From an uncultured Ruminococcus sp. (GTDB lineage: Bacteria > Bacillota > Clostridia > Oscillospirales > Ruminococcaceae): a stretch of DNA of 61,745 bases. Below are positions 3,201-16,756 of this stretch, piece by piece (the first letter of the stretch is position 1; each line of letters starts with the position of its first letter). Made by a program: the position numbers and the translations under genes. The notes under the pieces were generated by a model that worked only from the letters and a program-made list of their open reading frames with translations, was not told the origin of the DNA and ran no database searches. The stretch is from assembly GCA_902783005.1 (NCBI GenBank), contig CACZPI010000081.1, positions 1 to 61,745 of the forward strand, given 5' to 3'.

Positions 3201-3316
3201 CAGTTGGCGGTCGCTGCCTTCGTCGGCATGGCGCTCATCCCTGCAAATGCGGTGCAGGACAGCGCGAGCGATGTGATCCCGCTGAGTATGCGTTTGAAAC
3301 GGGATTTTGTTTGCAT
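239..3316 (-). CDS. Secreted dockerin protein with two SGNH esterase domains (rhamnogalacturonan acetylesterase-like)
   Basis: This 1025-residue secreted protein probably removes acetyl groups from pectin or other plant polysaccharides. Order of parts: signal peptide (about 1-35); beta-sandwich like that at the N-terminus of rhamnogalacturonan acetylesterases (38-170); SGNH domain 1 with GDST (184-187), GIND (254-257) and a D365-x-x-H368 pair; ricin-B/CBM13-like lectin domain (395-540); Pro/Thr linker (541-566); dockerin with two calcium-loop repeats (570-627); CBM35-like domain (643-772); SGNH domain 2 with GDST (806-809), IND (876-878) and D992-x-x-H995. Both catalytic sets look complete. 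The start is supported by AGGAGG eight bases upstream and a TTGCAA-N17-TATAAT promoter. The dockerin predicts docking to a cellulosome scaffoldin. Exact substrate is inference from the CE12-like family resemblance. Confidence 0.9.
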   Translation of the reverse strand: MQTKSRFKRILSGITSLALSCTAFAGMSAMPTKAATANWKFDFGASGTASGFTGVSASDAYNTSRGYGFSGSVADVTANGVGANADAVSFTGGEFQVDLPTGLYQVTVTTGDSPRTSIKIEGMLQMINLTGTNAVESIQVPVTDGKLNISAVAGMNGVKYTIAALEITQLNTTGAMKPTVWICGDSTVANYYNTPDYAQHGWGQYLKNYINTNVFEVRNQASSGQYAKGFVDGGQFDAIKYYGKPGDYYVISIGINDTNYSNGEEYYNVVTDMVKVAKGKGMNVILVKQQGRHGDLIRTNSAGSYVLLGGRWFGGQLDQIGQEQGVTVIDDFTAWQNFGLSLGADNQAAYDAMYEYYAGTGDNRDDLHQSAKGAQKNAEIIAGLMKIGDTEMDTSVYYTFKNTNSGLVMDVAGGEMAEGTNLQQWGSNGLTAQQFQLTPFAGGTTYYYMRSAVNPDYCLKAMSADSGGNIELVPYNTKDSMMLFQFTKIGDGSYYISTRSSRDACFVEVASASRESGANVQQWQYSYSTCQNWQAVKVEIQQQPTEPDTQPTSEPDTQPTQPTQSVSGIMGDINADGVVDIFDMALMKRMAMRTGIFTDQQMLVADVTGDGTVDMKDAVLLQKHLMCLDAPFADMIPKDPYADYYFAVDQTWEQGYAETVNAGYTKDEGYVNLNNELNSNITFTVNVAQEANYYVEIRMSNGKNDDRTMRVEVNGNTQQYWRQPFIGTDAWDNWKTVGIVLPLKAGANTIKFISETENGGPNLDYIRLDITDEPIAEIFSPEIDAELERQRQEAAAAAKPVVYIAGDSTVQSYRASAAPQQGWGYYLGDYFNDDIGSVSNHAISGRSSKSFYDQGRFETIANSLKAGDYVLIQFAINDADYTKSERYAPVCGNVNNPEAGSYEWYMTQFINATLDKGATPILVTTVIGLKAYSNGKFVNSYTNYCDACKSLASKYNIPCIDLNTLMVNHYNSVGYDTALSYHLMGAVEGSTDGTHFCEKGANVVAGLVAGAIKNQKIEGLYTCVK

Positions 3317-3372
3317 ACAAATTCCTCCTTTGAAAAATAGAATGATTAAATAACAATTTATTCATCATTTCT

Positions 3373-3401
3373 ATTATACCTAAAGTTTCACGAATTTGCA
3401 A
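3373..3401 (-). promoter_or_regulatory. Sigma-A-type promoter of the SGNH/dockerin gene
   Basis: On the minus strand TTGCAA (3396-3401) is 17 bases from TATAAT (3373-3378). Confidence 0.7.
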
Positions 3402-3462
3402 TGACTTTTTGTATTGTTTTTGTTGCTTTTCTTCGCTTATTATCGCTTTTCTCACCATCTGC

Positions 3463-3492
3463 AAAAAGCACCGGATCCGTTTGGATCCGGTG
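3463..3492 (-). terminator. Terminator of the hyp/nitrogenase-like operon
   Basis: A 10-bp stem (3469-3478 with 3483-3492, loop GTTT read on the plus strand) is followed on the minus strand by CTTTTTG. It lies just after the last gene of the operon. Confidence 0.75.
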
Positions 3493-3500
3493 AAGTATGC

Positions 3501-3764
3501 TCAGGATTGTGCCTCGTCCATCAACGCCTGGTCAATCGCGATCGCAAGCTGATCGGCGCAGGAGGTGCCGCGCATCCCGCATTCATTTCCGCGCAGCAGA
3601 TCGGCGATCTCCTCCGCATCCGCGCCCTCAAGCAGCTTGGAAAGTGCAGCGGTATTGCCGGGACATCCCCCGTTGAAACGGACATTGTGCAGCTTGCCGT
3701 CCTCCAGCGAAAAGCCGATCTGACGGGCACAGACGCCTCTGGTATTGTAAACGTAATCCTTCAT
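3501..3764 (-). CDS. Small TSCPD-domain protein (TIGR03905-like), last gene of hyp operon
   Basis: This 87-residue protein has the features of the small stand-alone TSCPD family: a FNGGCPGN motif (about residues 30-37), a GNECG motif and a TSCADQLA motif near the C-terminus. The same fold occurs at the end of some vitamin-B12-dependent ribonucleotide reductases, but the function of the stand-alone proteins is not known to me. The ATG at 3764 is chosen because AGGAGG lies six bases upstream; longer readings in this frame run back into hypE. It starts 16 bases after the hypE stop and precedes the operon terminator, so it is co-transcribed with the hyp and nitrogenase-like genes. Conserved cysteines could bind metal or a cluster, which is inference. 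Confidence 0.8.
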   Translation of the reverse strand: MKDYVYNTRGVCARQIGFSLEDGKLHNVRFNGGCPGNTAALSKLLEGADAEEIADLLRGNECGMRGTSCADQLAIAIDQALMDEAQS

Positions 3765-3780
3765 CCGAATCCTCCTTCTC

Positions 3781-4788
3781 TCAGCAGATCCGCGGCAGCA
3801 GCTCGCCCTTGGGCTGCGGGAGCATGGTCTGGGTGCCGATCTCCGTTTCCATGACAACGCGGCCTGCATGCTCCGCAGTCACATGACCGATGACAGCAGC
3901 ATTCCTGGAATACGGGCATTCATGCAGCGCATCCACCAGCTTCTGAGCCTCCTCCTGCGGAGCAAAGATCACAAGTCTCCCCTCGCATGCCAGATACAGC
4001 GGCTCCAGGCCAAGCATGCCGCATACGCCCTTGACACGCGGATCCACCGGAATGGACGGCGCATCAAGCGTAATGCCCACATTGCTCTGCTCTGCGATCT
4101 CATACAGCACCGTGCCGACGCCGCCGCGGGTCGCATCGCGGATCACATGGATCTGATCGGTCGCTTCAAACATGCGCTCGACCGTGCCCCAGAGCGGTGC
4201 GCAGTCGCTGTCCACATCCGAACCGATCCCGAAATCATCCCGCGCGATCAGAATGGTGCAGCCGTGCCGCCCCACATCGCCGGACACAATGACAGCATCC
4301 CCGGGCTTTGCATAAGCTCCGGAGGTATGGGCATGCTCCATGATCTGACCAATGCCCGTAGTCGTAATGAATACGCCGTCGCACTGCCCCTTTCCCGCGA
4401 CCTTGGTATCACCGGCAACGATCTTCACGCCGACCTCGGCAGCCGTCTTTTCCATTGCCGCGGCGATCTCCTCGAGATCATCGAGCGGGAAGCCCTCCTC
4501 AATGACGAAGCCGCAGGTCATATACAGCGGCTTGGCACCCATACAGGACAGGTCGTTGACCGTGCCGCAGATGGAGAGCTTGCCGATATTGCCGCCGTTA
4601 AATTTCCACGGAGATACGATGAATCCATCCGTGGACATCGCAAGCCGCCCGCCGGGCTGCGGCAGAACTGCGGCATCATCCGCAGTGAATTCCGGATTGG
4701 AGAAATGCGCCTGAAAGACCCTTGCGATCAGCTCGCTTGTCTGCCTGCCCCCCGCGCCGTGCGCAAGGGTCACTGTTGTTTCACTCAT
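3781..4788 (-). CDS. hypE: Hydrogenase maturation protein HypE (carbamoyl dehydratase)
   Basis: HypE accepts a carbamoyl group from HypF on its C-terminal cysteine and dehydrates it with ATP to a thiocyanate, the source of the cyanide ligands in the Fe(CN)2CO unit of [NiFe] hydrogenase. The 335-residue protein has the PurM/AIR-synthetase-like layout: N-terminal LAHGAGG motif, GFIVSPWKFNGGNIGKLS-type ATP-binding region, and the diagnostic C-terminus PRIC with the catalytic cysteine as the last residue (C335). It lacks nothing visible. The gene follows hypD by 15 bases with GGAGG before its ATG. Identification is secure; whether its cyanide goes to a hydrogenase or to another enzyme in this organism is not shown by the window. 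Confidence 0.97.
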   Translation of the reverse strand: MSETTVTLAHGAGGRQTSELIARVFQAHFSNPEFTADDAAVLPQPGGRLAMSTDGFIVSPWKFNGGNIGKLSICGTVNDLSCMGAKPLYMTCGFVIEEGFPLDDLEEIAAAMEKTAAEVGVKIVAGDTKVAGKGQCDGVFITTTGIGQIMEHAHTSGAYAKPGDAVIVSGDVGRHGCTILIARDDFGIGSDVDSDCAPLWGTVERMFEATDQIHVIRDATRGGVGTVLYEIAEQSNVGITLDAPSIPVDPRVKGVCGMLGLEPLYLACEGRLVIFAPQEEAQKLVDALHECPYSRNAAVIGHVTAEHAGRVVMETEIGTQTMLPQPKGELLPRIC

Positions 4789-4803
4789 GATTCTCGTTCC
4801 TCC

Positions 4804-5853
4804 TCAATTGGTTGCATATTGATAATACGCCGCACAGGCACCCTCATCCGATACCATGCATGCTCCGACCGGATGCAGCGGCGTACAGCCCTTGCCGAAT
4901 ACCTTGCAGTCGGACGGACGGCATTTTCCCTGGAGCACATCGCCGCACCGGCAGGCAGGATTTGGTCTGCCGGTGATCACCGGCATATGATATTTGATAC
5001 GCGCATCATAGTCCGCATACGCCTCGCGCAGCTTCATGCCGCTGCCCGGGATCATGCCAAGCCCGCGCCATTCACTGTCGCAAGGCTCCATGACTTCCTC
5101 CATCAGACGAATCGCAGCAGGATTTCCTTCATCCCTGACCACTCGCGGATAGCAGTTGCGGAAAAACGGCTTTCCTTCTCCAAGGAGCTTGACCGTTACC
5201 GCCATTGCCGTGAGCAGCTCCGCTGCGGTAAAGCCCGCCACAACGCCGGACACGCCCTGCTCCTCGCAAAGCCGCTGACAGACGGCATTGCCTGTGATCG
5301 CATTGACATGGCCGGGGTACAGGAAGGCATCCGCACTTCCGACAAGCGCCTGGTAGGCATTCGGCATGGTCTTGTTGGCGGTCAGCAGGGAGAAATTTTT
5401 CAGACCTGCCGCCTTTGCCTGCTTCGCCGCAAGACATGCGGAGGGCGTTGTGGTCTCGAATCCGACTGCCAGGAAGGCGACCTGACGATCCGGATTCTCC
5501 TTTGCAATTTCCACCGCATCCAGCGGCGAATACACCGGCCGCACATCCGCACCCTTCGCCCTGGCGCCCGCAAGGCTCATTTCCGTTCCGGGCACGCGGA
5601 TGAGGTCACCGAAGGTACAGACGATGCAGCCCTGTTCAAGTGCGAGCCAGCATGCTTCATCAATAAACCCGACTGCCGTCACGCAGACCGGACATCCGGG
5701 GCCGGAGATCAGGTCAATGGATTCCGGCAGCAATCCGCGGATGCCGAGCCGGAAGATCTCATGCGTATGCGTGCCGCAGACCTCCATGATGCGCAGGGGT
5801 CTTCCGGAATAGCCGGTAATGATCTCCCGCGCCGCTCTGATCGTTTCGTTCAT
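4804..5853 (-). CDS. hypD: Hydrogenase maturation protein HypD (Fe(CN)2CO scaffold)
   Basis: HypD, with HypC, carries the iron atom while CO and two cyanides are added, and has a [4Fe-4S] cluster. The 349-residue protein keeps all family signatures: CGTHTHE near residue 26, GPGCPVCVT near residue 51, the GFETTTPS motif, and the C-terminal cysteine-rich block CRCGDVLQGKCRPSDC followed by the CMVSDEGACAAYY ending. Its ATG overlaps the hypC stop by four bases, so the two partners are translationally coupled, as expected for a HypC-HypD complex. No odd substitutions were seen. Confidence 0.97.
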   Translation of the reverse strand: MNETIRAAREIITGYSGRPLRIMEVCGTHTHEIFRLGIRGLLPESIDLISGPGCPVCVTAVGFIDEACWLALEQGCIVCTFGDLIRVPGTEMSLAGARAKGADVRPVYSPLDAVEIAKENPDRQVAFLAVGFETTTPSACLAAKQAKAAGLKNFSLLTANKTMPNAYQALVGSADAFLYPGHVNAITGNAVCQRLCEEQGVSGVVAGFTAAELLTAMAVTVKLLGEGKPFFRNCYPRVVRDEGNPAAIRLMEEVMEPCDSEWRGLGMIPGSGMKLREAYADYDARIKYHMPVITGRPNPACRCGDVLQGKCRPSDCKVFGKGCTPLHPVGACMVSDEGACAAYYQYATN

Positions 5854-6059
5854 AGCAGCCCCTCCAGCAGACCTGCGGTCTCCGCTTCATCATCCTCGGT
5901 GATCTTTGCAATGGCGACACCGGCGTGTACCATCACGAAATCACCCGGCTCAAGATCGTCGAGAACACCGGCACTGACCTCACGGGTCGCACCGTTGGCG
6001 TCAATCAGCGCCGTTCCGTCTTCTACACTGACAACCTTTGCAGATAATCCAACACACAT
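5850..6059 (-). CDS. hypC: Hydrogenase maturation chaperone HypC/HybG/HupF family
   Basis: HypC is a small OB-fold chaperone whose N-terminal cysteine (exposed after removal of Met1) holds the iron during ligand assembly with HypD and then delivers it to the hydrogenase large subunit. This 69-residue protein starts MCVGLSAKVV, which places the essential Cys at position 2. The ATG at 6059 is preferred over one 15 bases upstream because it gives Cys2 and has GGAGG eight bases away. It has the usual GDFVMVHAGVAIAKI core. A 38-base gap separates it from hypF and it overlaps hypD by four bases. Confidence 0.95.
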   Translation of the reverse strand: MCVGLSAKVVSVEDGTALIDANGATREVSAGVLDDLEPGDFVMVHAGVAIAKITEDDEAETAGLLEGLL

Positions 6060-6097
6060 GGTAAATACCTCCATAAAGATAGAATGATTGATTTTGT

Positions 6098-8395
6098 TTA
6101 TACATGCATTGCAGCATATGCCGCCTGTCCGACGGCAATGCCGCCGTCATTGGGCGGGATCAGATGATGTCGGAGCACGGTGATACCCTGTGCCGCGAAC
6201 ATTTCTTCGCAAAGCCGCGTCAGCAGCCGGTTCTGAAAGACCCCGCCGCTGAGTGCCGCCGTCTGAATGCCGGTCTGCTCCCGCAGAATGCAAACACTCT
6301 CCGTGATCTGCTGAGCAAGTGCGGCATGGAACTGACAGGCAAGCGCCTCCTTCGTTTCCGGATGTGCCAGCATTTCCTCTGCAACGCGGGATAATAGCTT
6401 TGCTGTCGGAAGCGTCACAAAGCCGCCACGCTCCATGACCGGAATGCGCTCCGGTGCAGGAATGCCGTTTCGCTTGGCATAGCGCTCCGCCTGCGTCATC
6501 AGCGCCGTGGCTGCTTCGCCTTCAAAGGTCGATGCCGTCCGGATGCCCAGTACCGCGGAAGCTGCATCAAACAGCCTTCCGCAGCTTGTTGAGGAGACTG
6601 CATTGATATGCCGCTGTGCCATGGCACGCTGTACGCCGAAATTCTGCGCGTCACACAACCCGAGCTTCACACACGCATCCTCTGCCGCATCTCCGAGCAT
6701 ATCCCGGAAGATCGACACCGCAATGCGCCAGCCCTCCTTCGAGGACGCATCCCCGCCGATCTGAAGAAACGGCGCAATGCTTCCCCGGCGTTCATAGCCG
6801 GAAAAATCGGAAATCAGCAATTCCCCGCCCCAGATCGTTCCGTCATCGCCGTAGCCGGTGCCGTCCATGCTCACGCCGATCACGCGGCCTGTACAGCCGT
6901 TTTCTGCCATGCAGGAGAGAATATGCGCATAATGATGCTGCACCTGCACGAGCGGAATGTCCCGCTGTGCGGCAAGCTCCTGTGCAACGGTGACGGTATT
7001 GTACAGCGGATGGGTGTCGCAGGCGATCACCTCCGGCTTTGCTTCCAGAAGGCCGCACAGACGATCGACCGATTCCCGCAGCGCGGCCACCGTGCGGATG
7101 TCCGCCATGTCCCCGACATAGGGAGAGGCATACAGCAGTCCTCCCCGCGCAATGCAGAAGCTGTTTTTCAGCTCCCCGCCGATACCAAGTGCCTGCCGCG
7201 GAGAATCGGCTTTGAGCATGACCGGCAGCGGCGCAAAGCCCCGGGAACGCCGGATCATGTAGGGCGCTCCGTCCAGCCAGTCACAGACGGAATCATCGGC
7301 ACGAATGCGGATCTTCCGGTCATGCGACAAAATCAGATCACAGAATCCGCCGATCTCCTTGACGGCATCCGCGTCATTCCGGCAGATCGGTGCGTCCCTT
7401 GCATTACCGCTGGTCATTACCAGACAGTCCGTCATGGCAATGCCGTCGGGATAGTCAAACAGCAGCATCTGTACCGGTGCATACGGCAGCATGACGCCAA
7501 CCGTATCCATGTCCGGTGCGATTTTTGCCGACAAGGTGCAACCCGGCTGCTTTTCGAGGAGAAGAATGGGCTTTTGCCAGCCGGTCAGCCATTCGGACTG
7601 TCCCTCCTGCACGATGCATTCGCGCTGCACCGTTTCGGGATCGCGCATCATCACCGCAAAGGGCTTCATCGGGCGGTGCTTGAGCAGCCGGAGTCTTTCT
7701 ACTGCGGCAGTATTGCGGGCATCACAGCACAGGTGGAATCCGCCGATGCCCTTGACCGCGGCGATCTTCCCTTCCATGACCGCACGCCGGACAGCCGTGA
7801 TCGCATCCTTTCCGCGTATGTCCGTGCCGACCAGATAGACCTGCGGGCCGCATGCATTGCAGCAGACGGGCTGTGCATCGTAGCGGCGGGTCGCAGGGTC
7901 TTCATATTCGCTGCGGCATTCCGGACACATCGGGAATTCCGCCATACTCGTGCGTTCCCGGTCGTAGGGCATCGTATCAAGGATCGTCAGGCGCGGACCG
8001 CATTGGGTGCAGTTGATGAAGGGATGCAGATAGCGCCGGTCTTGCGGGTCAAACAGCTCCCTGCGGCATTTGTCGCAGGTGGCGATGTCGGGCGAGACAA
8101 AGATATTGCCGTATTCCCGCTTGGATTCAATAATGGAAAATTCCCGGAATTCCGGTGCATCCTCCACCGTCTGCACTTCTGTATCGAGGATCATGGAGCG
8201 CTCCGGCGCTTCCTGTGCAATGGCTTTCTGAAATGCCGCAAGGGCTTGCGCTTCCCCCTGCGCATAGATCTCCACATACGATCCCTTGTTCGACACCGTA
8301 CCGCGAATGCCGTACCTTCCAGCCGTGACCGCGGTAAACGGCCGGAATCCGACACCCTGTACAATGCCGAAAAGCTGCATTTTTATGGTGCGCAT
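6098..8395 (-). CDS. hypF: Hydrogenase maturation carbamoyltransferase HypF
   Basis: HypF converts carbamoyl phosphate and ATP to carbamoyl-adenylate and passes the carbamoyl group to HypE. Domains in order: acylphosphatase-like (about 4-90, with VQGVGFRPF), two zinc-finger pairs (C107/C110 with C129/C132, and C157/C160 with C179/C182), YrdC-like (about 195-375) and a Kae1-like carbamoyltransferase half with [20 protein letters not shown] and the LSGGVFQN motif. The 765-residue length matches the family. The start at 8395 ([12 protein letters not shown]) has GAGG at a good distance and overlaps the upstream NifK-like gene by 13 bases, so it is coupled to the nitrogenase-like genes rather than separately expressed. 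Confidence 0.96.
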
Positions 8396-9426
8396 GTATC
8401 TGTCCTCAATTCTGCACTGACTGCGTGATGGGCAAAGGGAATGAATGTGCCCTCCCATCCCCGCAGCAGACGCCGGAAGGCATTGTCGGCAATGATGACC
8501 TCATACCCGCGATCACGGATCGTTTCGAGGAGCATATCCTCCCCCGTGATTCGGAAATCCTGCTCTCTTGCCAGATCCGGCGAAAACAGGAACCATGTCG
8601 CGCAGTCGGCATTCCGGTCTTCCATCTGCTCACGCAGCGCATTGGCCGCGATCTGCTGGTGAATGATGAGTGTCTTACTGCCGCGGATTTCCTTTGCCTG
8701 CGCAACCACCTCCGGCGGCAGACAGGGAAAACCGGTCTCATAGGGAATGCCAAAATGCTCATGCAGCTCCTGTGCTGCCTTGAGACCGGAAGGAGCGATC
8801 ACATACAGCTTTTCGCATTCCGTCACGCGGCGGATCTCGTCAAGAGAGCTGTCAAGTCCGAAGCAAACTGCCTCTGTGCAGTTCATCGCGCGGACAATAT
8901 CCCGTGCATGGGTAAAGCCGGTATCCAGCGGCGTTGCACCGAGAATGCCGACCTTGCCCGGCTTCACAGGGAGCTTCTCTCTGGCAAAGCGCCGGAACAG
9001 CGCACAGTATGCCTTTTCTGCGCCCTTGTCGTAATACTTCGTTCCGTCTGTATTCAGGGCGATGCACGGCAGGCCTGTCTGCTTTTCGGCCATTCTTTCG
9101 AGTGCATGAAAATCAGTCGCAATGACCGCGGGAACCGGTGTGCCGATGACTGCGGTGAATGCCGCCTCCGGCACCTGCGTACAGACCTTGGCCAGTTTCT
9201 TCACCAGCCGTTCATCGCGTCCGAGAATGGCATCCATATCCCGCAGTCCAGCGCTGAACAATGCCGAACGCTTTTCATGCCAACGCGGCTCGTCGAATCC
9301 GCAGACATTGCCCGCGCATCCGCCTGCATCACAGATCACCACAATGCCGCCCAGCTCATACAGCACCGAGCAGGCACCGCTGTCATCAGGTGCAAACGGC
9401 GACAATGCTTTGAGCAGCTTCTTCAT
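8383..9426 (-). CDS. Nitrogenase-like component, NifK/NifN-type, second module
   Basis: This 347-residue protein is related to the small subunits of nitrogenase-superfamily enzymes (NifDK, NifEN, BchNB, CfbD). It opens with a block shared with the protein at 11475-12581: D-x-x-G-x-CS-x-LYELGG (C19), DAGGC (C37) and DEPRW, followed by [11 protein letters not shown], the position of the conserved nitrogenase motif around a gly-rich turn. Candidate cluster ligands are C19, C32, C37 and C42. At 347 residues it is much shorter than NifK (about 520). Its ATG overlaps the stop of the NifD-like gene by four bases, indicating a 1:1 complex. Substrate unknown. Its paralogue has a cysteine at position 93 that is replaced here by isoleucine. 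Confidence 0.8.
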
Positions 9427-10721
9427 ACTTTCACCTCACTGTGTTCACGGATCGCCTGTGCCAGCCTCCGGAAGATCAGCTCCACCCCGCGGTATCCGAA
9501 GGGCTGCTCTTCCTCACTGAACGGAATCCCGGGCAGATCCCGGTGGTAATACGCCGCATCGCTGCCGATGCATACATCAATCCGGCAGTCGCGTTCATAG
9601 CCGAGCATGGTCGGGGAAAGATTGGAATAGATGCGCGTTTCCGGAGAGCGTGCCGCCAGCTTTTTCAGATACACGAAATTGCGCTCACCGATCGTTCCGT
9701 AGATCTCGGAAACATGGAATCCGTATTCCGTCAGGGCCAGCGCCAGCTCAAAGCTGTCGGCATTCATGCACTCACCAACCGCAAAATGCACATCACCAAA
9801 TGATTCCCGGAATTCCGCAATTGCCCTTGCAGCACTGTCATACCAGAGCGAATCGTCAAACTTTGCGCCGATCGCCTGTCCAAGAAGACGGTACTGATTC
9901 CGGATCTTGTCCAGACGGTAGAGCCTTGTCAGTTCGATGAACGGAATACCCAGGCGCTCATGCATATCCTGTGCGGCGGCGCGTGCCTCGGCATTGAGCA
10001 CGATGCTGAAATTGGCGCGGGACATGGCCTTGTATTCCGCAAAATCCGTGCACCGCCCGATCTCACGGACAGTTTTGATCCCTGCCTGGTACAGCAGCTC
10101 ATACAGCTCGCAGCCGTCTTCAAGCGCCGTAAAATAACCCAGGAGATTACACTCTGACCTGACACGCTCCTGCTTTTCGAGCAGCGAATAGATCGACCGG
10201 CGCACCAGCCCCATCGGAGGCAGGCGCTTTTCACGGGTCAGCGCATACATGTAGGCCGGAACACAGGGAACGCCGGATGCCTCTGCACTGCTCCGGCAGA
10301 CACGTTCCATATCCGTGCCGAGAAGTGCATCCACACAGGTACAGCAGATCATGATGGCAGACGGCTCATAGTCGAGCGGTTCGCGAAGCTCCTGACATGC
10401 CTGCGGGATCTTTTTGAGATAACGGCCGGTGACAATGTCGGTATCATCGAGCAGGAGATAGAAGAATTTATCATTGTATCCGAGCTCATTGAGCAGTGCG
10501 GTATTCCGCCCGCAGCATCCCGGCGCAACCAGCAGCATCACCGCGCCTGGAATGCACAGGCCTGCACGCTTAACACCGAAGCCCTTGGCTCCGGGGGAAT
10601 TGAAATCAAGCGTGGCAGGAGAGCTGTAGATCAGGTGCTTATTGGAGACAAGCTCCTCCGGGAGATCCGTCAGCCCGCGTCCTGCAAGCTCCGCGGCAGT
10701 ACAATAAAACGCCTTATTCAT
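9423..10721 (-). CDS. Nitrogenase-like component, NifD/NifE-type, second module
   Basis: A 432-residue nitrogenase component-1-like protein, predicted partner of the NifK-like protein that follows. It has C7 near the N-terminus, C56, a [10 protein letters not shown] motif (C69/C70) where family members hold a cluster ligand, and an [15 protein letters not shown] motif near 124-138 resembling the third ligand region of NifD. It is shorter than NifD (about 490). It overlaps the upstream NifH-like gene by eight bases and the downstream gene by four. Assignment to the superfamily rests on these motifs and on neighbours; which subclass it belongs to needs a profile search. It does not look like a dinitrogen-reducing NifD in length or in neighbours. 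Confidence 0.78.
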
Positions 10722-11478
10722 GGGCTTTCTCCTCGTCGATCAGCTTTTGAGCAAGGGCAAGGAAGCGCTTTGCCGCCTCGCAGTCCGGTGCGCCCTCGAT
10801 CACGGTCATGCCCCGATCCTCGCAGCGGATAATATCATCCGAACGCGGAATATCCGCAGCGATCTCCAATCCCGCCGTCTGTGCAAAGCGACAGACCTTC
10901 TCTTCCTCCTGCTCCACATTTCTGCGGTTCATGATGATGCCGCGCACGCGGGCATAGCTGCGGTCTTCAAAATTTTTCACGGCATTGTGAATGTTGTTTG
11001 CCGCATACAGCGCCATTTTCTCGCCGGAGGTCACGATCAGCACCTGCGATGCATAGCCCTCCCGGATGGGTGCCGCAAATCCGCCGCAGACCACATCGCC
11101 CAGGACATCATAAAGCACGACATCGGGCTTGTATTTCTCAAACAGATGCAGCTCCTCAAGAAGCGAGAATGTGGTGATGATGCCTCTGCCTGCACAGCCA
11201 AGTCCCGGTGTGGGGCCGCCTGTTTCAATGCAGAGGATGCCGCCGAATCCGGTCTCAGAGATCTCCTCGATGGATTCCGGCTCGTCGTCGTGCTCGCGCA
11301 GGTAATCCATAACAGGCGTGACAGGCGTGCCGCCGAGCAGATTGATGGTGGAATCTGCCTTGGGATCGCAGCCGATCTGGATGACGCGCTTACCGAGTGT
11401 CGCGAAGGCTGCTGCAAGATTGGCAGTGCAGGTGGATTTACCGATGCCGCCCTTGCCGTAAATTGCGAGTTTTATCAT
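10714..11478 (-). CDS. NifH/BchL/CfbC-like iron protein, second copy
   Basis: A 254-residue P-loop ATPase of the nitrogenase iron-protein family that should pass electrons to the NifD/K-like pair encoded just downstream. Visible features: GKGGIGKST (8-16), GCDPKADST (36-44), the two [4Fe-4S] ligands C95 (PGLGCAGRG) and C131 (DVVCGG), and R98, the arginine that is ADP-ribosylated in some NifH proteins. These residues form a homodimer with a bridging cluster in the family. Its ATG overlaps the preceding NifK-like gene by four bases and has AAGGAG eight bases upstream. About the length of BchL/CfbC and slightly shorter than NifH. Confidence 0.93.
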
Positions 11479-12581
11479 AATGAAATCTCCTTACAGATGA
11501 GATTGGGAATGGTGTGTTCATAGCACCGCCCGGAAAATGCAAAATGCGCCAGCGGATGCAGCATCGCCTCCGGGGGCAAAATAAACCGGTACAGAGGATC
11601 GGCATAGACATGCTCTGCATTTCGCAGGATCTCTGCGATCTCCTCCTCTGACGAAGCGGCGCTGTCACCCGGTGCCAGAAATCTTCTGTCATCCGTGACC
11701 GGTGAGATCAGATGCGCCCCCAGCTCGCACGCCAGGGATCCGGCATAGACCGGCTCACCGATACAATAGATATGCCCTTCCCCGCGGTGTGCCATGCAGG
11801 GAGCGGCATTCTCCCCCGATGCTGCGGCCTTGTGCAGAGCCTCTGCAAGGATCACCGTGAAGCGGACGCCGACCGGAATGCCGCAGACATAGGGAATGCC
11901 GTAGGCTTCCCGCAGATATTCTGCCGCAGGAAGGCCGCAGGCGGAAACGACCAGATTCACTGCCGCCTCTCCCAGATGAGACAATGCTTCAAAGCGGTCA
12001 GACATGGCAAGGCAGCATTTCACGGAAAAGCCCTGCTTCTCCATCCAGCCGCGGACGGATTCCGCGGTGCCGTTCGTATACAGATCAAGCGGTGTGGCAC
12101 CGAGTATATTCACGCCCTTCGGGTCACGCGGCGCAGGATTTGCAAATGCCCTTGTAACAGCAAGCAGCGCCTCGGATGCACCGTCCAGATAGGAACGGGT
12201 ACCGTTGGTATGCATCGCAAATGTTCGGATACCGGTGCGTCTTTCGATCTCGGAGGCAATCGCATCAAAATCCACACCGGTCATCATCGGCATCGGTGAG
12301 CCGCAGACCGTGATAAACCCCGGGTGCAGATCGGCCGCCGCTGCGGTCACATCCGAAATGAGCTTTTCATCGTTGCCCATGATCGCGTCGATCTCGGTCA
12401 GCGCCGAAATGAAGATATCGGATTGCAGAGATTCCCACCGCGGCTCGTCATGGGTCGCATACGTCGAATTGCAGCCGGAGGCATCGTGTACAACGGTCAT
12501 GCCCCCCAGCTCATAGAGCGCAGAGCAGACACCGGCAGTATCGGCAGCATAGCAGGGAATGATCGTGGCGTTATTCTTCAT
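11475..12581 (-). CDS. Nitrogenase-like component, NifK/NifN-type, first module
   Basis: A 368-residue paralogue of the protein at 8383-9426. The N-terminal block is D-x-A-G-x-CS-x-LYELGG (C19), DASGC (C37), DEPRW, then [11 protein letters not shown]. Candidate ligands are C10, C19, C37 and C93 (VCGSPMP); C10 and C93 are not kept in the second copy, so the two modules are not redundant in their metal sites. It also has a longer, cysteine-containing C-terminal part ending [21 protein letters not shown] lies eight bases before the ATG, 12 bases after the NifD-like stop. Substrate unknown. Confidence 0.8.
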
Positions 12582-12593
12582 GGCAGATCCCTC

Positions 12594-13910
12594 CTATCCC
12601 AGACAGCTCTCGCAGCCCCAGCCCTTATGCCGGAGCACGGTACGGCGGCTTTTCGGATTCCGGAATGCATCCTCCATCAGTCCTGCCAGCGAAACAATGC
12701 CGGAAAAGCCGTAGAATCCGCCGTTCATCACGATATTGACAAAATGGTCGGTCGCAAAATAATACGCAGCCTTCTGCCCGATCGCCAGCACCGGCGGATG
12801 CGGTTCTTCATGAAAATGCAGCATATTGACATTCGTCGCCGCATAGAGCATGAGATCCGGGACATGCACCTGGAGCCATGCAAAGGCTTCCGTTTCCTCC
12901 GGCGCTGCATCGGCAATGATATGCCGGACACGGAATCCATGCTCAGCCAGGAGCTTTGCCAGCTCAAACGGGCGGGAAACTGCCGTAAAATCAATCGCGA
13001 TCTCCCTGTCTCCGATCAAATCATGCGCCGCATCAAGCGCAGCATGCATCTCCCGGATATTTTCCCCGAATTCCGGCACAGCCACGCCGAGTGCTTCACA
13101 CAGGCTCCGGTAATTTTCCAGAATGGTCTGCACCTCGAAGCTCGCCGGGAGATGCAGATGCCGTCCGCCGATGCGCTGCGTCAGCTTCTCCCCCGCCGAA
13201 CGCGTGACAGGGGTGTAGGTAATATACAGTGCGCTGTCCGCCATCTGCAAATATTCATCATAGGTGTGGCACAACGTCAGATCCCGCAGGGTACATCCGG
13301 CATTCCGGATGATCTGTACAAGCTCGGAATGTACATCCGTCGGGCGGTCGTTTCCAAGGATGCCAACAGACTTCGGATCCTTCGGAAGCGGGCGCAGCGG
13401 GAAATAGAGCTGCTCTGCGAGCTTCGCAGCAGGAGAGACCGTCTGGCGCATCGTCGGGGTCATGTAGCAGTCCACAAAATCGATTTCCGGGAATTGTCCG
13501 GACAGCTCCCGCAGGATGATCTCGAAATCACATCCGGCAAACAGATGGATGCAGCTCAGAAACAGCAGCACCGCACGCGGCTTTTTGCCGAGTCTGCGGA
13601 GAATATCGGCAGTCCCGTCAATGACCTTCTGCTCCAGCGTGCCGTCAAACATATCCTGCTCCGAGACAGATACCCAGCTCATGCGGTCAAGGGCATTCAT
13701 CTCCGCTGCCGTCAGGATCACGCCCCGCAGGCAGCCCTGCGCACAGACAAAGATCTGCTGTGCCTCCGGAAGAAGCATGCCGGTATGGACGATATTCCAC
13801 ATGCCGCGGGCAGGCGTGTTGTATTCAAGACCGGAGGGGAAGAAGCCTGCGGCATTTGCATCCGTGATCCGGACACAGGGGGCTTTCTCATAGGAATGCA
13901 GTGCCTTCAT
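12594..13910 (-). CDS. Nitrogenase-like component, NifD/NifE-type, first module
   Basis: A 438-residue nitrogenase component-1-like protein, paralogous in position to the gene at 9423-10721. Cysteines near expected ligand regions are C12, C56 and C60 (FVCAQGC), C120 and C127 (LSCIHLFAGC). The C-terminus GWGCESCLG adds a CxxC pair not seen in the second copy. The ATG at 13910 overlaps the NifH-like stop by four bases (ATGA) with GGAGG ten bases upstream; an ATG at 13919 is also possible but would have its binding site only one base away. Predicted to form a heteromer with the NifK-like protein downstream. Confidence 0.78.
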   Translation of the reverse strand: MKALHSYEKAPCVRITDANAAGFFPSGLEYNTPARGMWNIVHTGMLLPEAQQIFVCAQGCLRGVILTAAEMNALDRMSWVSVSEQDMFDGTLEQKVIDGTADILRRLGKKPRAVLLFLSCIHLFAGCDFEIILRELSGQFPEIDFVDCYMTPTMRQTVSPAAKLAEQLYFPLRPLPKDPKSVGILGNDRPTDVHSELVQIIRNAGCTLRDLTLCHTYDEYLQMADSALYITYTPVTRSAGEKLTQRIGGRHLHLPASFEVQTILENYRSLCEALGVAVPEFGENIREMHAALDAAHDLIGDREIAIDFTAVSRPFELAKLLAEHGFRVRHIIADAAPEETEAFAWLQVHVPDLMLYAATNVNMLHFHEEPHPPVLAIGQKAAYYFATDHFVNIVMNGGFYGFSGIVSLAGLMEDAFRNPKSRRTVLRHKGWGCESCLG

Positions 13911-14662
13911 CCTCCGCATACCTCCAGGATCGCCTGTGCCGCCGCATCAAGCTGGCGTGCGGCATTGCTGTCAGGACAGACGACAGAAACGGGCTTTGCA
14001 AGGCGCTCTGCCTGCGCAATGTCCGAGCTTCGGTCAACGGAAGCGAGGATCTTTGTCCCGAAATCCTCTGCAAGCGCCTGTGCCTGTGCATCCTCCTCCG
14101 GCACTCCGCGCCGGTTGAGCAGAATGCCGCCGAGGGAAGCGTACCCGCGCCCCTGGAAATTCTGCACGGCCATGCAGATATTGGCGGCGGCATAGACGGA
14201 CATTTTCTCTCCGGAGGTCACCACAAAGATGCGGTCTGCATAGCCTCCGCGCATCGGCATGGAAAAGCCGCCGCAGACAACATCGCCCAGTACATCATAG
14301 ATGACGACGTCCGGCTTGTAGACCTCATAGGCACCAAGGCGGGAGAGCGTTTCAAGCGCATTGATGATGCCGCGTCCCGCACATCCAAGCCCCGGCACAG
14401 GACCCCCGGCCTCGACACAAAGCACCCCGCCCGCTCCCGGACGGACAATCTCATCAAGCTGCAGGGCATTCCCCTTCTCGCGGGTGAGCTGCAGCACGGT
14501 CGGGATCCGCTCCCCGTCATGCAGGAGCGACGTGGAATCTGCCTTCGGATCGCAGCCGATCTGCATGACGGTCAGTCCCCTTGCCGCGAGTGCCGCGGAT
14601 ACATTGCAGGCAATGGTGGACTTGCCGATGCCGCCCTTGCCGTAGATCGCAAATCGGATCAT
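13907..14662 (-). CDS. NifH/BchL/CfbC-like iron protein, first copy
   Basis: A 251-residue nitrogenase-type iron protein, first gene after the structured leader. It has the P-loop GKGGIGKST (8-16), GCDPKADST (36-44), cluster ligands C94 (PGLGCAGRG) and C130 (DVVCGGF). It shares about the same layout as the second copy but differs in the switch and C-terminal regions, so each probably serves its own NifD/K-like pair. AAGGGG precedes the ATG. The presence of both cluster cysteines separates it from MinD/ParA-type ATPases of the same fold. Confidence 0.93.
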   Translation of the reverse strand: MIRFAIYGKGGIGKSTIACNVSAALAARGLTVMQIGCDPKADSTSLLHDGERIPTVLQLTREKGNALQLDEIVRPGAGGVLCVEAGGPVPGLGCAGRGIINALETLSRLGAYEVYKPDVVIYDVLGDVVCGGFSMPMRGGYADRIFVVTSGEKMSVYAAANICMAVQNFQGRGYASLGGILLNRRGVPEEDAQAQALAEDFGTKILASVDRSSDIAQAERLAKPVSVVCPDSNAARQLDAAAQAILEVCGG

Positions 14663-14700
14663 ATTCGTTCCCCTTTCCGTATTTCCCCGGTACAGCGCAT

Positions 14701-14738
14701 AAAAAAGCAGCCGTTCTCCGTCAGGCGGATACGGCTGT
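14701..14738 (-). terminator. Intrinsic terminator in the operon leader
   Basis: On the minus strand an imperfect stem (14708-14714 with 14731-14737, inner stem 14717-14720 with 14726-14729) is followed by TTTTTT (14701-14706). It lies between the TM1266-like gene and the first NifH-like gene, 39 bases before that start codon, so transcripts must pass it to reach the operon. Confidence 0.75.
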
Positions 14739-14880
14739 GCGGTAGCACAAGAGCTGCATAGAGGGCATCTGTTCCGCCTTCATGCAGGTCTTTGCAGCAG
14801 TATCAGCTTTTGCCGCAAGCGCCCTTGGGCGGTTTTGGCATCAGAAGAAATACATGTATGCTATGAAATTATGATTTGAA
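14701..14880 (-). promoter_or_regulatory. Structured 5' leader, candidate riboswitch or attenuator (class unknown)
   Basis: The 230-base gap between the TM1266-like stop and the NifH-like start holds several nested stems on the minus strand: TGCC/GGCA enclosing GCCCAAGGGC (about 14807-14840), CTGCAT/ATGCAG enclosing AGGC/GCCCT (about 14754-14790), GTGC/GCAC (about 14737-14748) and then the terminator. I could not match it to a known riboswitch consensus. It could instead be only the terminator of the regulator gene. Confidence 0.4.
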
Positions 14881-14893
14881 ATCTGCCTCCGTC

Positions 14894-15142
14894 TTATGCA
14901 GACGGTGCATAAACAGTTTTGGCATTCACGCCCGGAAGTCTCCCGATCGCACCTGCCAGCGAATTGATGACATCCTGCGGGGCATCCATCGCTACATTGA
15001 TGATGCTGATGCCCTTGGATCGGTAGGGCACGCCCATCCGGCCGATGATATACCCGCCGTATTCATGCAGGAGCGCATTGATGCTGACAGCGGAATCACT
15101 GTCCCGGACAAGTATGGCGATCACTGCCACACGGGTATCCAT
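14894..15142 (-). CDS. TM1266 family, putative iron-only hydrogenase system regulator
   Basis: An 82-residue ACT-like protein of the TM1266 family, often found beside [FeFe]-hydrogenase maturation genes and named for that association; its ligand is unknown. Motifs: VAVIAILV at the N-terminus, LLHEYGGYIIGRMGVPYR in the middle, and INVAMDAP plus GRLPGV towards the end. The ATG at 15142 is preferred over an upstream in-frame start because AGGAGG is eight bases away. It has a consensus promoter and is the first gene upstream of the NifH-like operon, separated by a leader with a terminator. It may sense a redox or metal signal for that operon, which is inference. Confidence 0.85.
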   Translation of the reverse strand: MDTRVAVIAILVRDSDSAVSINALLHEYGGYIIGRMGVPYRSKGISIINVAMDAPQDVINSLAGAIGRLPGVNAKTVYAPSA

Positions 15143-15166
15143 TCCGCATTCCTCCTCTTTGCTCCT

Positions 15167-15195
15167 ATTATACCATAAAAGCGTCATTCTGTCAA
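15167..15195 (-). promoter_or_regulatory. Consensus promoter of TM1266-like gene (and possibly the hyp/nif-like operon)
   Basis: Perfect TTGACA (15190-15195), 17-base spacer and perfect TATAAT (15167-15172) on the minus strand. No other clear promoter was seen before the first NifH-like gene. Confidence 0.85.
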
Positions 15196-15205
15196 GCGGA
15201 ATCTA

Positions 15206-15234
15206 TTGCATTCTGCCGGATCCTGTGCTATAAT
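15206..15234 (+). promoter_or_regulatory. Promoter of glpK
   Basis: TTGCAT (15206-15211), 17-base spacer, TATAAT (15229-15234). It is divergent from the TM1266-like promoter, with the -35 elements only ten bases apart. Confidence 0.75.
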
Positions 15235-15268
15235 GAAAGTACCGATTCCAATAGAAAGGGGCATCGCC

Positions 15269-16756
15269 ATGAAAACCTATCTTCTCTCCCTTGACCAGGG
15301 TACAACTTCCTCGCGTGCAGTGCTGTTCGATACACAGGGACAGCATGTATTCTCCGCACAGTATGAATACCCCCAGATCTTTCCGCAGGCCGGTTGGGTC
15401 GAGCACGATCCCTATGAAATTCTCAATACCCAGCTCCGTGCTGCCCGGGACTGCATGGACTGGCTCCGGGAGCATGCGCCGGATGCTGACGTTGCCGCCG
15501 TGGGTGTGACGAACCAGCGTGAAACCACCATCGTCTGGGATAAGACGACCGGAAAGCCAGTCTATAACGCCATTGTCTGGCAGTGCCGCCGCACGGCAGA
15601 GGAATGCCGCGTCCTTGAAAAGCAAGGCGTCGTCCCCCTTCTGCGGGAAAAAACCGGACTGCTGCTCGATCCCTATTTTTCTGCGACGAAGCTGCGCTGG
15701 ATCCTGGAGCATGTCCCGGATGCCCGCGCAAGGGCAGAATGCGGCGAGCTGCTTTTCGGCACGGTCGATACCTGGCTGATCTGGCATCTGACCGGCGGAA
15801 AGGTACATGCAACGGATTACACCAATGCCTCGCGGACGATGCTCTACAATATCCACACGCTGCAATGGGATCCGGAGATCCTCGATCTGCTGGAGATTCC
15901 GGCGCAGATGCTTCCGGAGGTGCGTGATTCCTCCGGCGACTTCGGCATGACATCCCGATCCATCCTCGGTGCATCCGTGCCGATCCTCGGATGTGCCGGC
16001 GATCAGCAGGCGGCTTTATTCGGGCAATGCTGCCTTGCACGGGGCGATGTGAAGAACACCTACGGCACCGGGGGATTTCTGCTGATGAATACAGGAGACA
16101 CCTGCATCGGCAGCACACATGGCTTATTATCCACCATCGGATGGGGCATCGGCGGCAAGATCACCTATGCACTGGAAGGCTCGGTATTCGTCTCGGGTGC
16201 TGTCATCAAATGGCTGCGTGATGAGCTCGGGATCATTCAGACGGCAGCGGAGACCGCAGCGCTTGCACAGAGTGTCCCGGATAATGCAGGCGTGTACTTC
16301 GTTCCGGCATTCGTCGGGCTTGGAACGCCGTACTGGGACAGCGAAGCCCGCGGCTTGCTGTGCGGTCTGACACGCGGCAGCGGCCGGGCGCATATCGTTC
16401 GTGCGGCACTCGAGGCAATTGCCTACCAGACTGCGGATGTGATCCGGGCAATGGAGCAGGATACCGCCGCACTTGGCAGCATCCGCGTAGACGGCGGTGC
16501 TTCTGCGAATGATTTCCTGATGCAGTTCCAGGCGGATATTCTGGGACGCGAGCTGCTTCGGCCGGCGCAGACGGAATCCACCGCACAGGGCGCAGCTTAT
16601 CTGGCAGGACTGGCAGCCGGGATCTGGAGCAGCACAGAGGAGCTTTTACGCATGGCAAAACATGACCGGGTATTCCGGCCTGCAATGGAGGAAACGCAGC
16701 GTCAGGCACTTCTGCACGGCTGGGAGGATGCGGTCAGACGTACCATGACGCGGTAA
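15269..16756 (+). CDS. glpK: Glycerol kinase
   Basis: Phosphorylates glycerol with ATP to glycerol 3-phosphate in the cytoplasm. The 495-residue protein is a full-length FGGY kinase with [11 protein letters not shown] at 7-17, [21 protein letters not shown], the GTGGFLL motif and [11 protein letters not shown] in the C-terminal half, which together fit GlpK better than xylulokinase or gluconate kinase. The ATG at 15269 is chosen because the family begins with the [12 protein letters not shown]-type sequence; upstream in-frame codons would overlap the promoter. An aquaporin gene lies 3.7 kb away but no glpD or glpF operon is adjacent. Ends at a strong bidirectional terminator. Confidence 0.95.

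What the first reader, a model, noticed from the sequence alone, without database searches (positions are those of the whole stretch)
3501..14662. Hyp (Fe(CN)2CO) machinery in one operon with two nitrogenase-like reductase modules
Seen: eleven genes in one direction, with overlaps of 4-13 bases or gaps up to 38 bases, encode NifH-, NifD-, NifK-like, again NifH-, NifD-, NifK-like, then HypF, HypC, HypD, HypE and a TSCPD protein. Known: HypCDEF make the Fe(CN)2CO unit of [NiFe] hydrogenase, while nitrogenase-like enzymes reduce hard substrates such as tetrapyrroles or metal cofactors. Inference: the two may act in one pathway, such as a new metallocofactor containing an Fe-CO/CN unit, or a reductive step in hydrogenase maturation. 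I know of no described pathway with this gene set.
Basis: partly seen in the sequence, partly recalled or inferred. Interest (0 to 1): 0.92.

Follow-up and report, generated by a model that had tools for sequence, protein, structure and literature searches.

The report
Hydrogenase cofactor assembly without HydG
This gut-type bacterium appears to build the iron-carbonyl-cyanide active site of its hydrogen-making enzyme without the usual enzyme HydG, using instead a cyanide-making kit known from another kind of hydrogenase together with two nitrogenase-like complexes, which would be a second natural route to this cofactor.

Summary
In detail: eleven minus-strand genes (14662 down to 3501) encode NifH-D-K-like, again NifH-D-K-like, then HypF-C-D-E and a TSCPD protein. 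In many relatives the same ten genes follow genes for HydF, HydE and the iron-only-hydrogenase regulator TM1266; the window keeps TM1266, and its HydE and HydF lie on another contig. HydG, which makes the CO and CN of the [FeFe]-hydrogenase H-cluster, is over its cut-off in 0 of 49 genomes with the operon; 46 of 49 have an [FeFe]-hydrogenase domain and 2 of 49 a [NiFe]-like large subunit. In 295 genomes of the order, the first nitrogenase-like module occurs in 11 of 19 HydF-positive genomes lacking HydG and 1 of 117 having it. Best reading: a HydG-independent H-cluster assembly line in which HypF and HypE make cyanide, HypC and HypD hold the iron, nitrogenase-like reductases do a low-potential step (perhaps supplying CO), and HydE and HydF finish. 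The role is inferred from genome context; the chemistry is untested. A 2022 paper noted missing HydG, and HypCDEF without HypAB, in Clostridium acetogens without linking them. TSCPD is probably incidental.

The parts
15167..15195 (-). consensus sigma-70 promoter pattern (TTGACA, 17 nt, TATAAT, TG before the second hexamer) upstream of TM1266
   Evidence: pattern scan, 12 of 12 matches; a pattern only
14894..15142 (-). TM1266-family iron-only hydrogenase system putative regulator
   Evidence: TIGR03959, 103.8 bits, cut-off 60.8; upstream of NifH1 in the 14 loci looked at for this, directly in 11 and with HydE between in 3
13907..14662 (-). NifH1-like Fe protein (module 1)
   Evidence: Pfam Fer4_NifH; P-loop, C94 and C130 conserved in 79 sequences
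12594..13919 (-). NifD1-like subunit (module 1)
   Evidence: Pfam Oxidored_nitro; C59, C63, C123 conserved and a C-terminal CxxC (98% and 95%) in 82 sequences; nitrogenase fold predicted, pLDDT 88
11475..12581 (-). NifK1-like subunit (module 1)
   Evidence: Pfam Oxidored_nitro; C19 in 98% of 87 sequences; best solved relative is a NifE chain
10714..11478 (-). NifH2-like Fe protein (module 2)
   Evidence: Pfam Fer4_NifH; C95 and C131 conserved in 82 sequences
9423..10721 (-). NifD2-like subunit (module 2)
   Evidence: Pfam Oxidored_nitro; C70 and C129 conserved, C126 99%, in 82 sequences; nitrogenase fold predicted, pLDDT 87
8383..9426 (-). NifK2-like subunit (module 2)
   Evidence: Pfam Oxidored_nitro; C37 and C42 conserved in 78 sequences
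6098..8395 (-). HypF carbamoyltransferase; the longest frame starts at 8458
   Evidence: TIGR00143, 727 bits, cut-off 466
5850..6059 (-). HypC; the longest frame starts at 6074
   Evidence: TIGR00074, 55.4 bits, cut-off 48; N-terminal Cys and a His conserved in 62 sequences
4804..5853 (-). HypD scaffold
   Evidence: TIGR00075, 407 bits, cut-off 192.8; C26, C54, C57 conserved in 67 sequences; operon-type HypD forms its own split
3781..4788 (-). HypE
   Evidence: TIGR02124, 420.5 bits, cut-off 251.6; C-terminal Cys335 conserved in 60 sequences
3501..3764 (-). TSCPD-domain protein (TIGR03905), probably not part of the system
   Evidence: no match in 80 related loci

Best explanation
The operon replaces HydG in making the diiron subcluster of the [FeFe]-hydrogenase H-cluster. 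Inferred steps: HypF and HypE turn carbamoyl phosphate into cyanide on the HypE C-terminal cysteine; HypC and HypD hold an iron atom and receive the cyanide, as in [NiFe]-hydrogenase maturation; the two ATP-driven nitrogenase-like complexes (NifH1-D1-K1 and NifH2-D2-K2), whose D/K-like proteins have the cofactor scaffold NifE as best or second-best solved relative by profile, carry or reduce this iron unit at low potential, so that it becomes the monocyano-dicarbonyl iron that HydE normally takes from HydG. A Hyp unit has two CN and one CO, while the HydG synthon has one CN and two CO, so an extra CO must be supplied; CO2 reduction by a nitrogenase-like complex is my candidate. HydE then builds the diiron precursor and HydF completes and delivers it. 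Shown by sequence: gene content and order, conserved cysteines, no HydG over cut-off, HydE, HydF and HydA in the window genome. Inferred: every chemical step and the division of labour between the two modules.
For: Of 46 loci with full flanks, 33 have HydE, 27 HydF, 38 TM1266 and all 46 at least one of the three; 41 of 46 share the ten-gene order; records are titled Clostridia-type and Lentisphaeria. HydG over cut-off in 0 of 49 genomes, against 117 of 136 HydF-positive genomes of the order and a positive Thermotoga control. Sub-cut-off hits of the HydG model: the two of 186-229 bits that I scanned are ThiH. [FeFe] domain in 46 of 49; three H-cluster motifs in the window genome's enzyme. [NiFe] large-subunit model in 2 of 49 and HypA in 3 of 49. 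Window genome: HydE 549 bits (cut-off 255) and HydF 525 (cut-off 326) on contig C95. In 295 genomes, module 1 is in 11 of 19 HydF+ HydG- and 1 of 117 HydF+ HydG+ genomes, Fisher p 1.8e-10 (not corrected for kinship; the 11 fall in 7 genera and 4 families). Operon HypD forms one split against 19 other HypD of the order; the one outsider inside it, G052, is itself HydF+ HydG- (support 0.83). Cysteines of HypC, HypD, HypE, NifH and NifD/K conserved.
Against: No biochemistry. 3 of 49 operon genomes (G304, G312, G328) show no [FeFe] domain at E 1e-40, and in 2 of 49 (G303, G304) the HydG model meets not even a HydE-like protein; completeness is not told for 46 of the 49. 8 of 19 HydF+ HydG- genomes lack module 1, and G150 has a distant module 1 but neither HydF nor HydG. 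G184 has a distant module 1 and HydG. A shorter related locus has module 1 and a FecBCD-type transporter but no module 2 or Hyp, so Hyp is not present wherever HydG is missing; one of its genomes, G148, has no [FeFe] domain at E 1e-40. Co-variation of pairwise identities over 36 loci is uneven (Spearman 0.37 for NifD1-HydE to 0.76 for NifD2-HypE). HydE and HydF were not searched for in the 49 genomes as such; they are seen in 48 and 37 of 80 loci, many of them truncated. The CO source is a guess.
Confidence: 0.8

Rival explanations
1. Hyp and the nitrogenase-like complexes make a different Fe-CN/CO cofactor for an unknown enzyme; HydE, HydF and TM1266 are neighbours because both are needed in hydrogen metabolism, and the H-cluster CO/CN comes from elsewhere.
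For: No biochemistry ties the product to HydA; I did not look for hydrogenase genes inside the operon loci (one search used other queries).
Against: HydG is over cut-off in 0 of 49 genomes, so the H-cluster would lack its known ligand source; module 1 tracks HydG absence.
Confidence: 0.1
2. Ordinary [NiFe]-hydrogenase maturation genes beside unrelated nitrogenase-like reductases.
For: HypC, D, E, F pass the curated cut-offs; 2 of 49 genomes have a [NiFe]-like large subunit and HypA on one contig.
Against: PF00374 in 2 of 49 and HypA in 3 of 49 genomes, neither in the window genome; operon HypD is a group apart.
Confidence: 0.02
3. ThiH or another radical-SAM tyrosine lyase stands in for HydG, and the operon only adjusts or repairs the cofactor.
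For: ThiH makes the same tyrosine fragment as HydG (recalled); 26 of 49 genomes have a HydG-model hit of 171-228 bits, ThiH in the two scanned.
Against: 23 of 49 have no such hit; in the R. bicirculans 80/3 genome the one HydG-model match lies at the operon's own HydE.
Confidence: 0.03
4. The nitrogenase-like complexes reduce a tetrapyrrole or C-S compound and share only regulation with hydrogenase genes.
For: The predicted fold matches DPOR and methylthio-alkane reductase about as well as NifDK and NifEN.
Against: Nearly the same gene set is kept together in other orders in two further families of the order (L020-L022); module 1 correlates with HydG absence; in the shorter locus a transporter ATPase is fused to a TM1266 domain.
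Confidence: 0.05

Closest known systems
HydE-HydF-HydG maturation of [FeFe] hydrogenase
   Same: HydE and HydF of the window genome pass their curated cut-offs; TM1266 regulator; HydA with H-cluster motifs
   Different: No HydG over cut-off; six nitrogenase-like and four Hyp proteins in the operon
HypCDEF part of [NiFe]-hydrogenase maturation (Fe(CN)2CO synthesis)
   Same: All four proteins with conserved cysteines, including the HypE C-terminal Cys
   Different: HypA in 3 of 49 and a [NiFe]-like large subunit in 2 of 49 genomes; operon HypD forms its own group
NifEN cofactor-assembly scaffold with NifH
   Same: A NifE chain is the best (NifD1, NifK1, NifK2) or second-best (NifD2) solved relative by profile; cofactor-assembly context
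   Different: Far below the NifE cut-off (63 bits at most against 505); K-like subunits of only 347 and 368 aa; two such modules side by side
CfbCD, BchLNB and methylthio-alkane reductase
   Same: NifH plus D/K-like architecture and, for DPOR and methylthio-alkane reductase, fold
   Different: No BchB, BchL, CfbC or CfbD cut-off is met; other gene neighbours
HydG absence and HypCDEF without HypAB in Clostridium acetogens (PMC9431212)
   Same: Same missing-gene pattern: HydG not found in 5 of 8 species; HypCDEF without HypAB in 5 of 8
   Different: That paper offers atypical HydG candidates and reports a [NiFe] hydrogenase in each species; the passages I saw do not link the two gaps or mention nitrogenase-like genes; I did not test those species

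Membership tests
HydEFG [FeFe]-hydrogenase maturation | HydE present | tested here: met
   Window genome contig C95, 548.8 bits, cut-off 254.6; in 33 of 46 loci with full flanks
HydEFG [FeFe]-hydrogenase maturation | HydF present | tested here: met
   Window genome contig C95, 524.8 bits, cut-off 325.6; in 27 of 46 loci with full flanks
HydEFG [FeFe]-hydrogenase maturation | HydG present | tested here: not met
   0 of 49 genomes over cut-off, window genome included
HydEFG [FeFe]-hydrogenase maturation | Client [FeFe] hydrogenase | tested here: met
   46 of 49 genomes; all three H-cluster motifs in 5 of 7 enzymes looked at, the window genome's included
[NiFe]-hydrogenase maturation (Hyp) | HypC, D, E, F with conserved cysteines | tested here: met
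[NiFe]-hydrogenase maturation (Hyp) | HypA (nickel insertion) | tested here: not met
   3 of 49 genomes; not in the window genome; HypB was not searched
[NiFe]-hydrogenase maturation (Hyp) | [NiFe] large subunit client | tested here: not met
   0 in the window genome; 2 of 49, both NuoD/FpoD-like proteins of 357-359 aa
Nitrogenase NifHDK / NifEN | NCBIfam NifH, NifD, NifE cut-offs | tested here: not met
   NifH 291 and 313 bits against 394; NifE 63 bits at best against 505; NifD 28 against 654
Nitrogenase NifHDK / NifEN | FeMo-cofactor ligands | not tested
   No residue-level superposition on NifD was made
CfbCD / BchLNB | Curated cut-offs of those families | tested here: not met
   CfbC 305 bits at best against 402; BchL 211 against 345; BchB 60 against 509; CfbD model 19 against 268
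Methylthio-alkane reductase (MarHDK) | Sequence-family membership | not tested
   Fold similarity only; no tree with named Mar proteins was made

The most novel reading that the evidence does not exclude
The nitrogenase-like complexes make the CO ligand, for example by reducing CO2 on a Hyp-held Fe(CN) unit, so that three metallocofactor systems (Hyp, Nif-like, Hyd) form one new assembly line for the H-cluster. A shorter version of the system would replace Hyp and module 2 by importing a ready iron complex through a FecBCD-type transporter whose ATPase carries a TM1266 domain.
Probability: 0.3. Interest if true: 0.97.

Novelty: new variant of a known kind. Interest (0 to 1): 0.92.

Why it matters
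HydG is described as the source of CO and CN in [FeFe]-hydrogenase maturation. A HydG-free route in hydrogen producers of the rumen and gut would explain an anomaly noted in print for acetogens, would give nitrogenase-like proteins a role in hydrogenase cofactor assembly, and could offer new parts for making hydrogenases in the laboratory. It is directly testable by isotope labelling and gene deletion.

Tried and rejected
Rejected: [NiFe] maturation; ThiH as a hidden HydG; TSCPD as a member; an RNA element in 3300-15400 (no Rfam match at E up to 1). Structure search could not place the D/K-like proteins in one known family: NifDK, NifEN, DPOR and methylthio-alkane reductase score alike. No tree against named NifDKEN, BchNB, CfbD or MarDK was built, because I had no named reference sequences in hand; none of the 8 other PF00148 proteins tested passed an NCBIfam cut-off either. 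Zheng 2014 on R. albus hydrogenases was not held; I know it only from its title in reference lists. The ten paper searches listed no paper whose title or abstract start describes this gene set; some lists were cut (20 of 24, 16 of 18 and 15 of 42 shown), I opened only four papers and saw passages of them, and the library holds open-licence PMC papers only.

Selections: the 49 genomes are the window's, G204, G286 and 46 of the 80 loci (the tool takes at most 50 loci; I chose mostly loci with long flanks). The 80 loci are the best of 405 confirmed matches, so less similar relatives are not represented. One search dropped 34 of 80 loci for short flanks. For one search, module 1 was assigned by hand to 13 of the 22 genomes with a PF00148 match, on similarity to NifD1 and NifK1; G084 and G267 were left out (only 62-90 bits there), and seven more (G008, G033, G063, G133, G228, G238, G242) because they had no NifD2-like match. 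One search scored at most six candidates a genome.
Full report
Observation. The eleven genes are present as described. HypF, HypC, HypD and HypE pass their NCBIfam cut-offs. The six Nif-like proteins are in the Pfam families but reach no NCBIfam cut-off, nitrogenase, DPOR or CfbCD. Upstream lies a TM1266-family gene, 14894-15142 (TIGR03959), behind a full-consensus sigma-70 promoter pattern.

Relatives. A search of 295 genomes of the order found NifD2-like matches in 15 at E 1e-10. A scan of the GTDB contigs with an alignment of three NifD2 proteins gave 405 confirmed relatives, of which the best 80 were kept; the records are titled Ruminococcus (R. albus and R. bicirculans among them), Lachnospiraceae, Clostridiaceae, Lentisphaeria, Victivallales and others. 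The two genes between TM1266 and NifH1 in many of them are HydF (549 bits, cut-off 326) and HydE (577 bits, cut-off 255), tested on the R. bicirculans locus. Of 46 loci with at least 6.5 kb upstream and 8 kb downstream of NifD2, 41 have the ten genes NifH1-D1-K1-H2-D2-K2-HypF-C-D-E in one order and strand; two lack HypF there and have HypE between NifD1 and NifK1; three lack HypE within the stretch held. HydE is in 33, HydF in 27, TM1266 in 38, and at least one of these in all 46. In two other families of the order nearly the same set occurs in other orders (L020-L021, where only one NifH was found, and L022). Pairwise identities of seven of the proteins co-vary over 36 loci, but unevenly (Spearman 0.37 to 0.76).

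No HydG. The HydG model (TIGR03955) is over its cut-off in 0 of 49 genomes that carry the operon, while it finds 118 of 295 genomes of the order, 117 of the 136 that have HydF, and the Thermotoga control. The completeness of 46 of the 49 is not told by the tool. Matches under the cut-off are of two kinds. Those of 171-228 bits occur in 26 of 49 genomes; the two that I scanned, from the window genome and the BL-3 genome, are ThiH, among neighbours that I read as thiamine genes. The weaker ones (80 bits or less) lie mostly in frames of 340-430 aa, as HydE would; two genomes (G303, G304) show none. In the R. bicirculans 80/3 genome (record titled complete sequence) the one match is the operon's own HydE by position. 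The window genome, 88% complete, has HydE and HydF on contig C95 and one [FeFe] hydrogenase with all three H-cluster motifs on contig C75. Of seven hydrogenase loci looked at, five show all three motifs by my patterns; L148 misses the second and L156 the third.

No [NiFe] client in most. The [NiFe] large-subunit model matches 2 of 49 genomes at E 1e-10, by about 69 residues of NuoD/FpoD-like proteins of 357-359 aa. HypA is in 3 of 49, including those same two genomes on the same contigs. [FeFe]-hydrogenase domains are in 46 of 49.

Exclusion of HydG. In the 295 genomes HydF is in 136, HydG in 118 and both in 117. Module 1 (NifD1/K1-type, assigned by hand) is in 11 of 19 HydF+ HydG- genomes and 1 of 117 HydF+ HydG+ genomes (Fisher p 1.8e-10). 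This is not corrected for shared descent: the 11 genomes fall in 7 genera and 4 families. One more module-1 genome (G150) has neither HydF nor HydG. Of the 11, ten have an [FeFe] domain at E 1e-40; G148 has none. Of the eight HydF+ HydG- genomes without module 1, four (G122, G104, G051, G244) have a member of the same genus with HydG, so some may be assembly gaps.

Hyp specialisation. In a HypD tree, 67 operon sequences and one outsider form a split against 19 other HypD of the order (support 0.83). The outsider is G052, 60% complete, HydF+ HydG-, with its hyp genes near a contig end: it falls where the hypothesis puts it.

Residues and fold. Conserved in nearly all sequences are the HypE C-terminal cysteine, the HypC cysteine and a histidine, HypD cysteines, NifH P-loops and two NifH cysteines, NifD1 C59, C63 and C123 with a C-terminal CxxC, NifK1 C19, NifD2 C70, C126 and C129, and NifK2 C37 and C42. 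That these are the residues that matter in known Hyp and Nif proteins is recalled, not tested. Profile searches of solved structures give a NifE chain as the best relative of NifD1, NifK1 and NifK2 and the second-best of NifD2. AlphaFold models of NifD2 and NifD1 (pLDDT 87 and 88) have the nitrogenase fold, about equally like NifDK, NifEN, DPOR and methylthio-alkane reductase.

A shorter version. In eight loci (L024-L031) module 1 occurs without module 2 or Hyp in the stretch held (one, L028, is a 6.2 kb contig): HydE stands beside it in 5 of 8. A FecBCD-type ABC transporter is confirmed by Pfam in L024 and L025 and in part in L029, and looks present in L027, L030 and L031 by the reading of sequence starts. 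In L025 and L029 the transporter ATPase is fused to a TM1266 domain; L030 and L031 look the same. HypD is absent from 6 of these 8 genomes at E 1e-50 and HydG from all 8; in G218 and G292 the HypD lies on another contig and outside the operon group of the tree. HydE was not searched for elsewhere in these genomes. This suggests that module 1 is the common core, and that Hyp plus module 2 can be replaced, perhaps by import of an iron complex.

Mechanism. In the known pathway HydG makes CO and CN from tyrosine and builds an Fe(II)(Cys)(CN)(CO)2 synthon; HydE reduces and dimerises it; HydF with the aminomethyl-lipoyl H-protein completes the diiron unit (PMC12752695, passages seen). With HydG missing and HypCDEF present, cyanide most likely comes from carbamoyl phosphate (Hyp chemistry recalled). 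HypCDEF give Fe(CN)2CO (PMC9431212, passages), so the ligand ratio must change before HydE can act. The nitrogenase-like complexes are the candidates for this low-potential step. CO2 reduction to CO is my specific guess, at about 0.3. The wider claim, that the operon replaces HydG in H-cluster assembly, I put at 0.8.

Known or new. PMC9431212 (2022; passages and section 11 seen) reports that HydG could not be found in 5 of 8 Clostridium acetogens and that HypCDEF occur without HypAB in 5 of 8; it offers atypical HydG candidates or unknown mechanisms, and finds a [NiFe] hydrogenase in each species. I did not test those species. Ten paper searches listed nothing that by title or abstract start describes a nitrogenase-like, Hyp, HydE and HydF gene set; most subscription papers are not held. 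R. albus is reported to make hydrogen with the electron-confurcating hydrogenase HydABC (PMC6288185, passages), and two R. albus genomes here carry the operon without HydG over cut-off (L049, L054). I call it a new variant because HydE and HydF are shared with the known pathway; its first part is unlike any H-cluster route I know of.

Changes on checking. 

Noticed in passing
L024-L031 (genomes G078, G039, G017, G292, G218, G148, G095, G031): A shorter locus: NifHDK1 with HydE or TM1266 and, where seen, a FecBCD-type ABC transporter whose ATPase is fused to a TM1266 domain in L025 and L029; no Hyp in the stretch held and no HydG over cut-off in the genome.
   Followed up: partly
window genome G000:C73:14804-22603: Two further pairs of Oxidored_nitro proteins (211-259 bits); the two tested reach no NCBIfam cut-off. 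Another uncharacterised nitrogenase-like system in the same genome.
   Followed up: partly
295 genomes of the order: 270 have an [FeFe]-hydrogenase domain at E 1e-40 but only 136 have HydF over cut-off; many carry HydA-like proteins without a recognised H-cluster scaffold.
   Followed up: no
L042, L043 and L044: HypE sits beside NifK1 (between NifD1 and NifK1 in L043 and L044), and HypF was not found in L043 and L044.
   Followed up: no
G000:C95:7181-11327: In the window genome HydF and HydE flank a flavodiiron-like protein and a deacetylase-like protein; those two names are my reading of the sequence, not a family search.
   Followed up: no
L064:820-4842: Six similar membrane-protein-like genes of about 200 aa lie between HydF and HydE; unknown role.
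   Followed up: no
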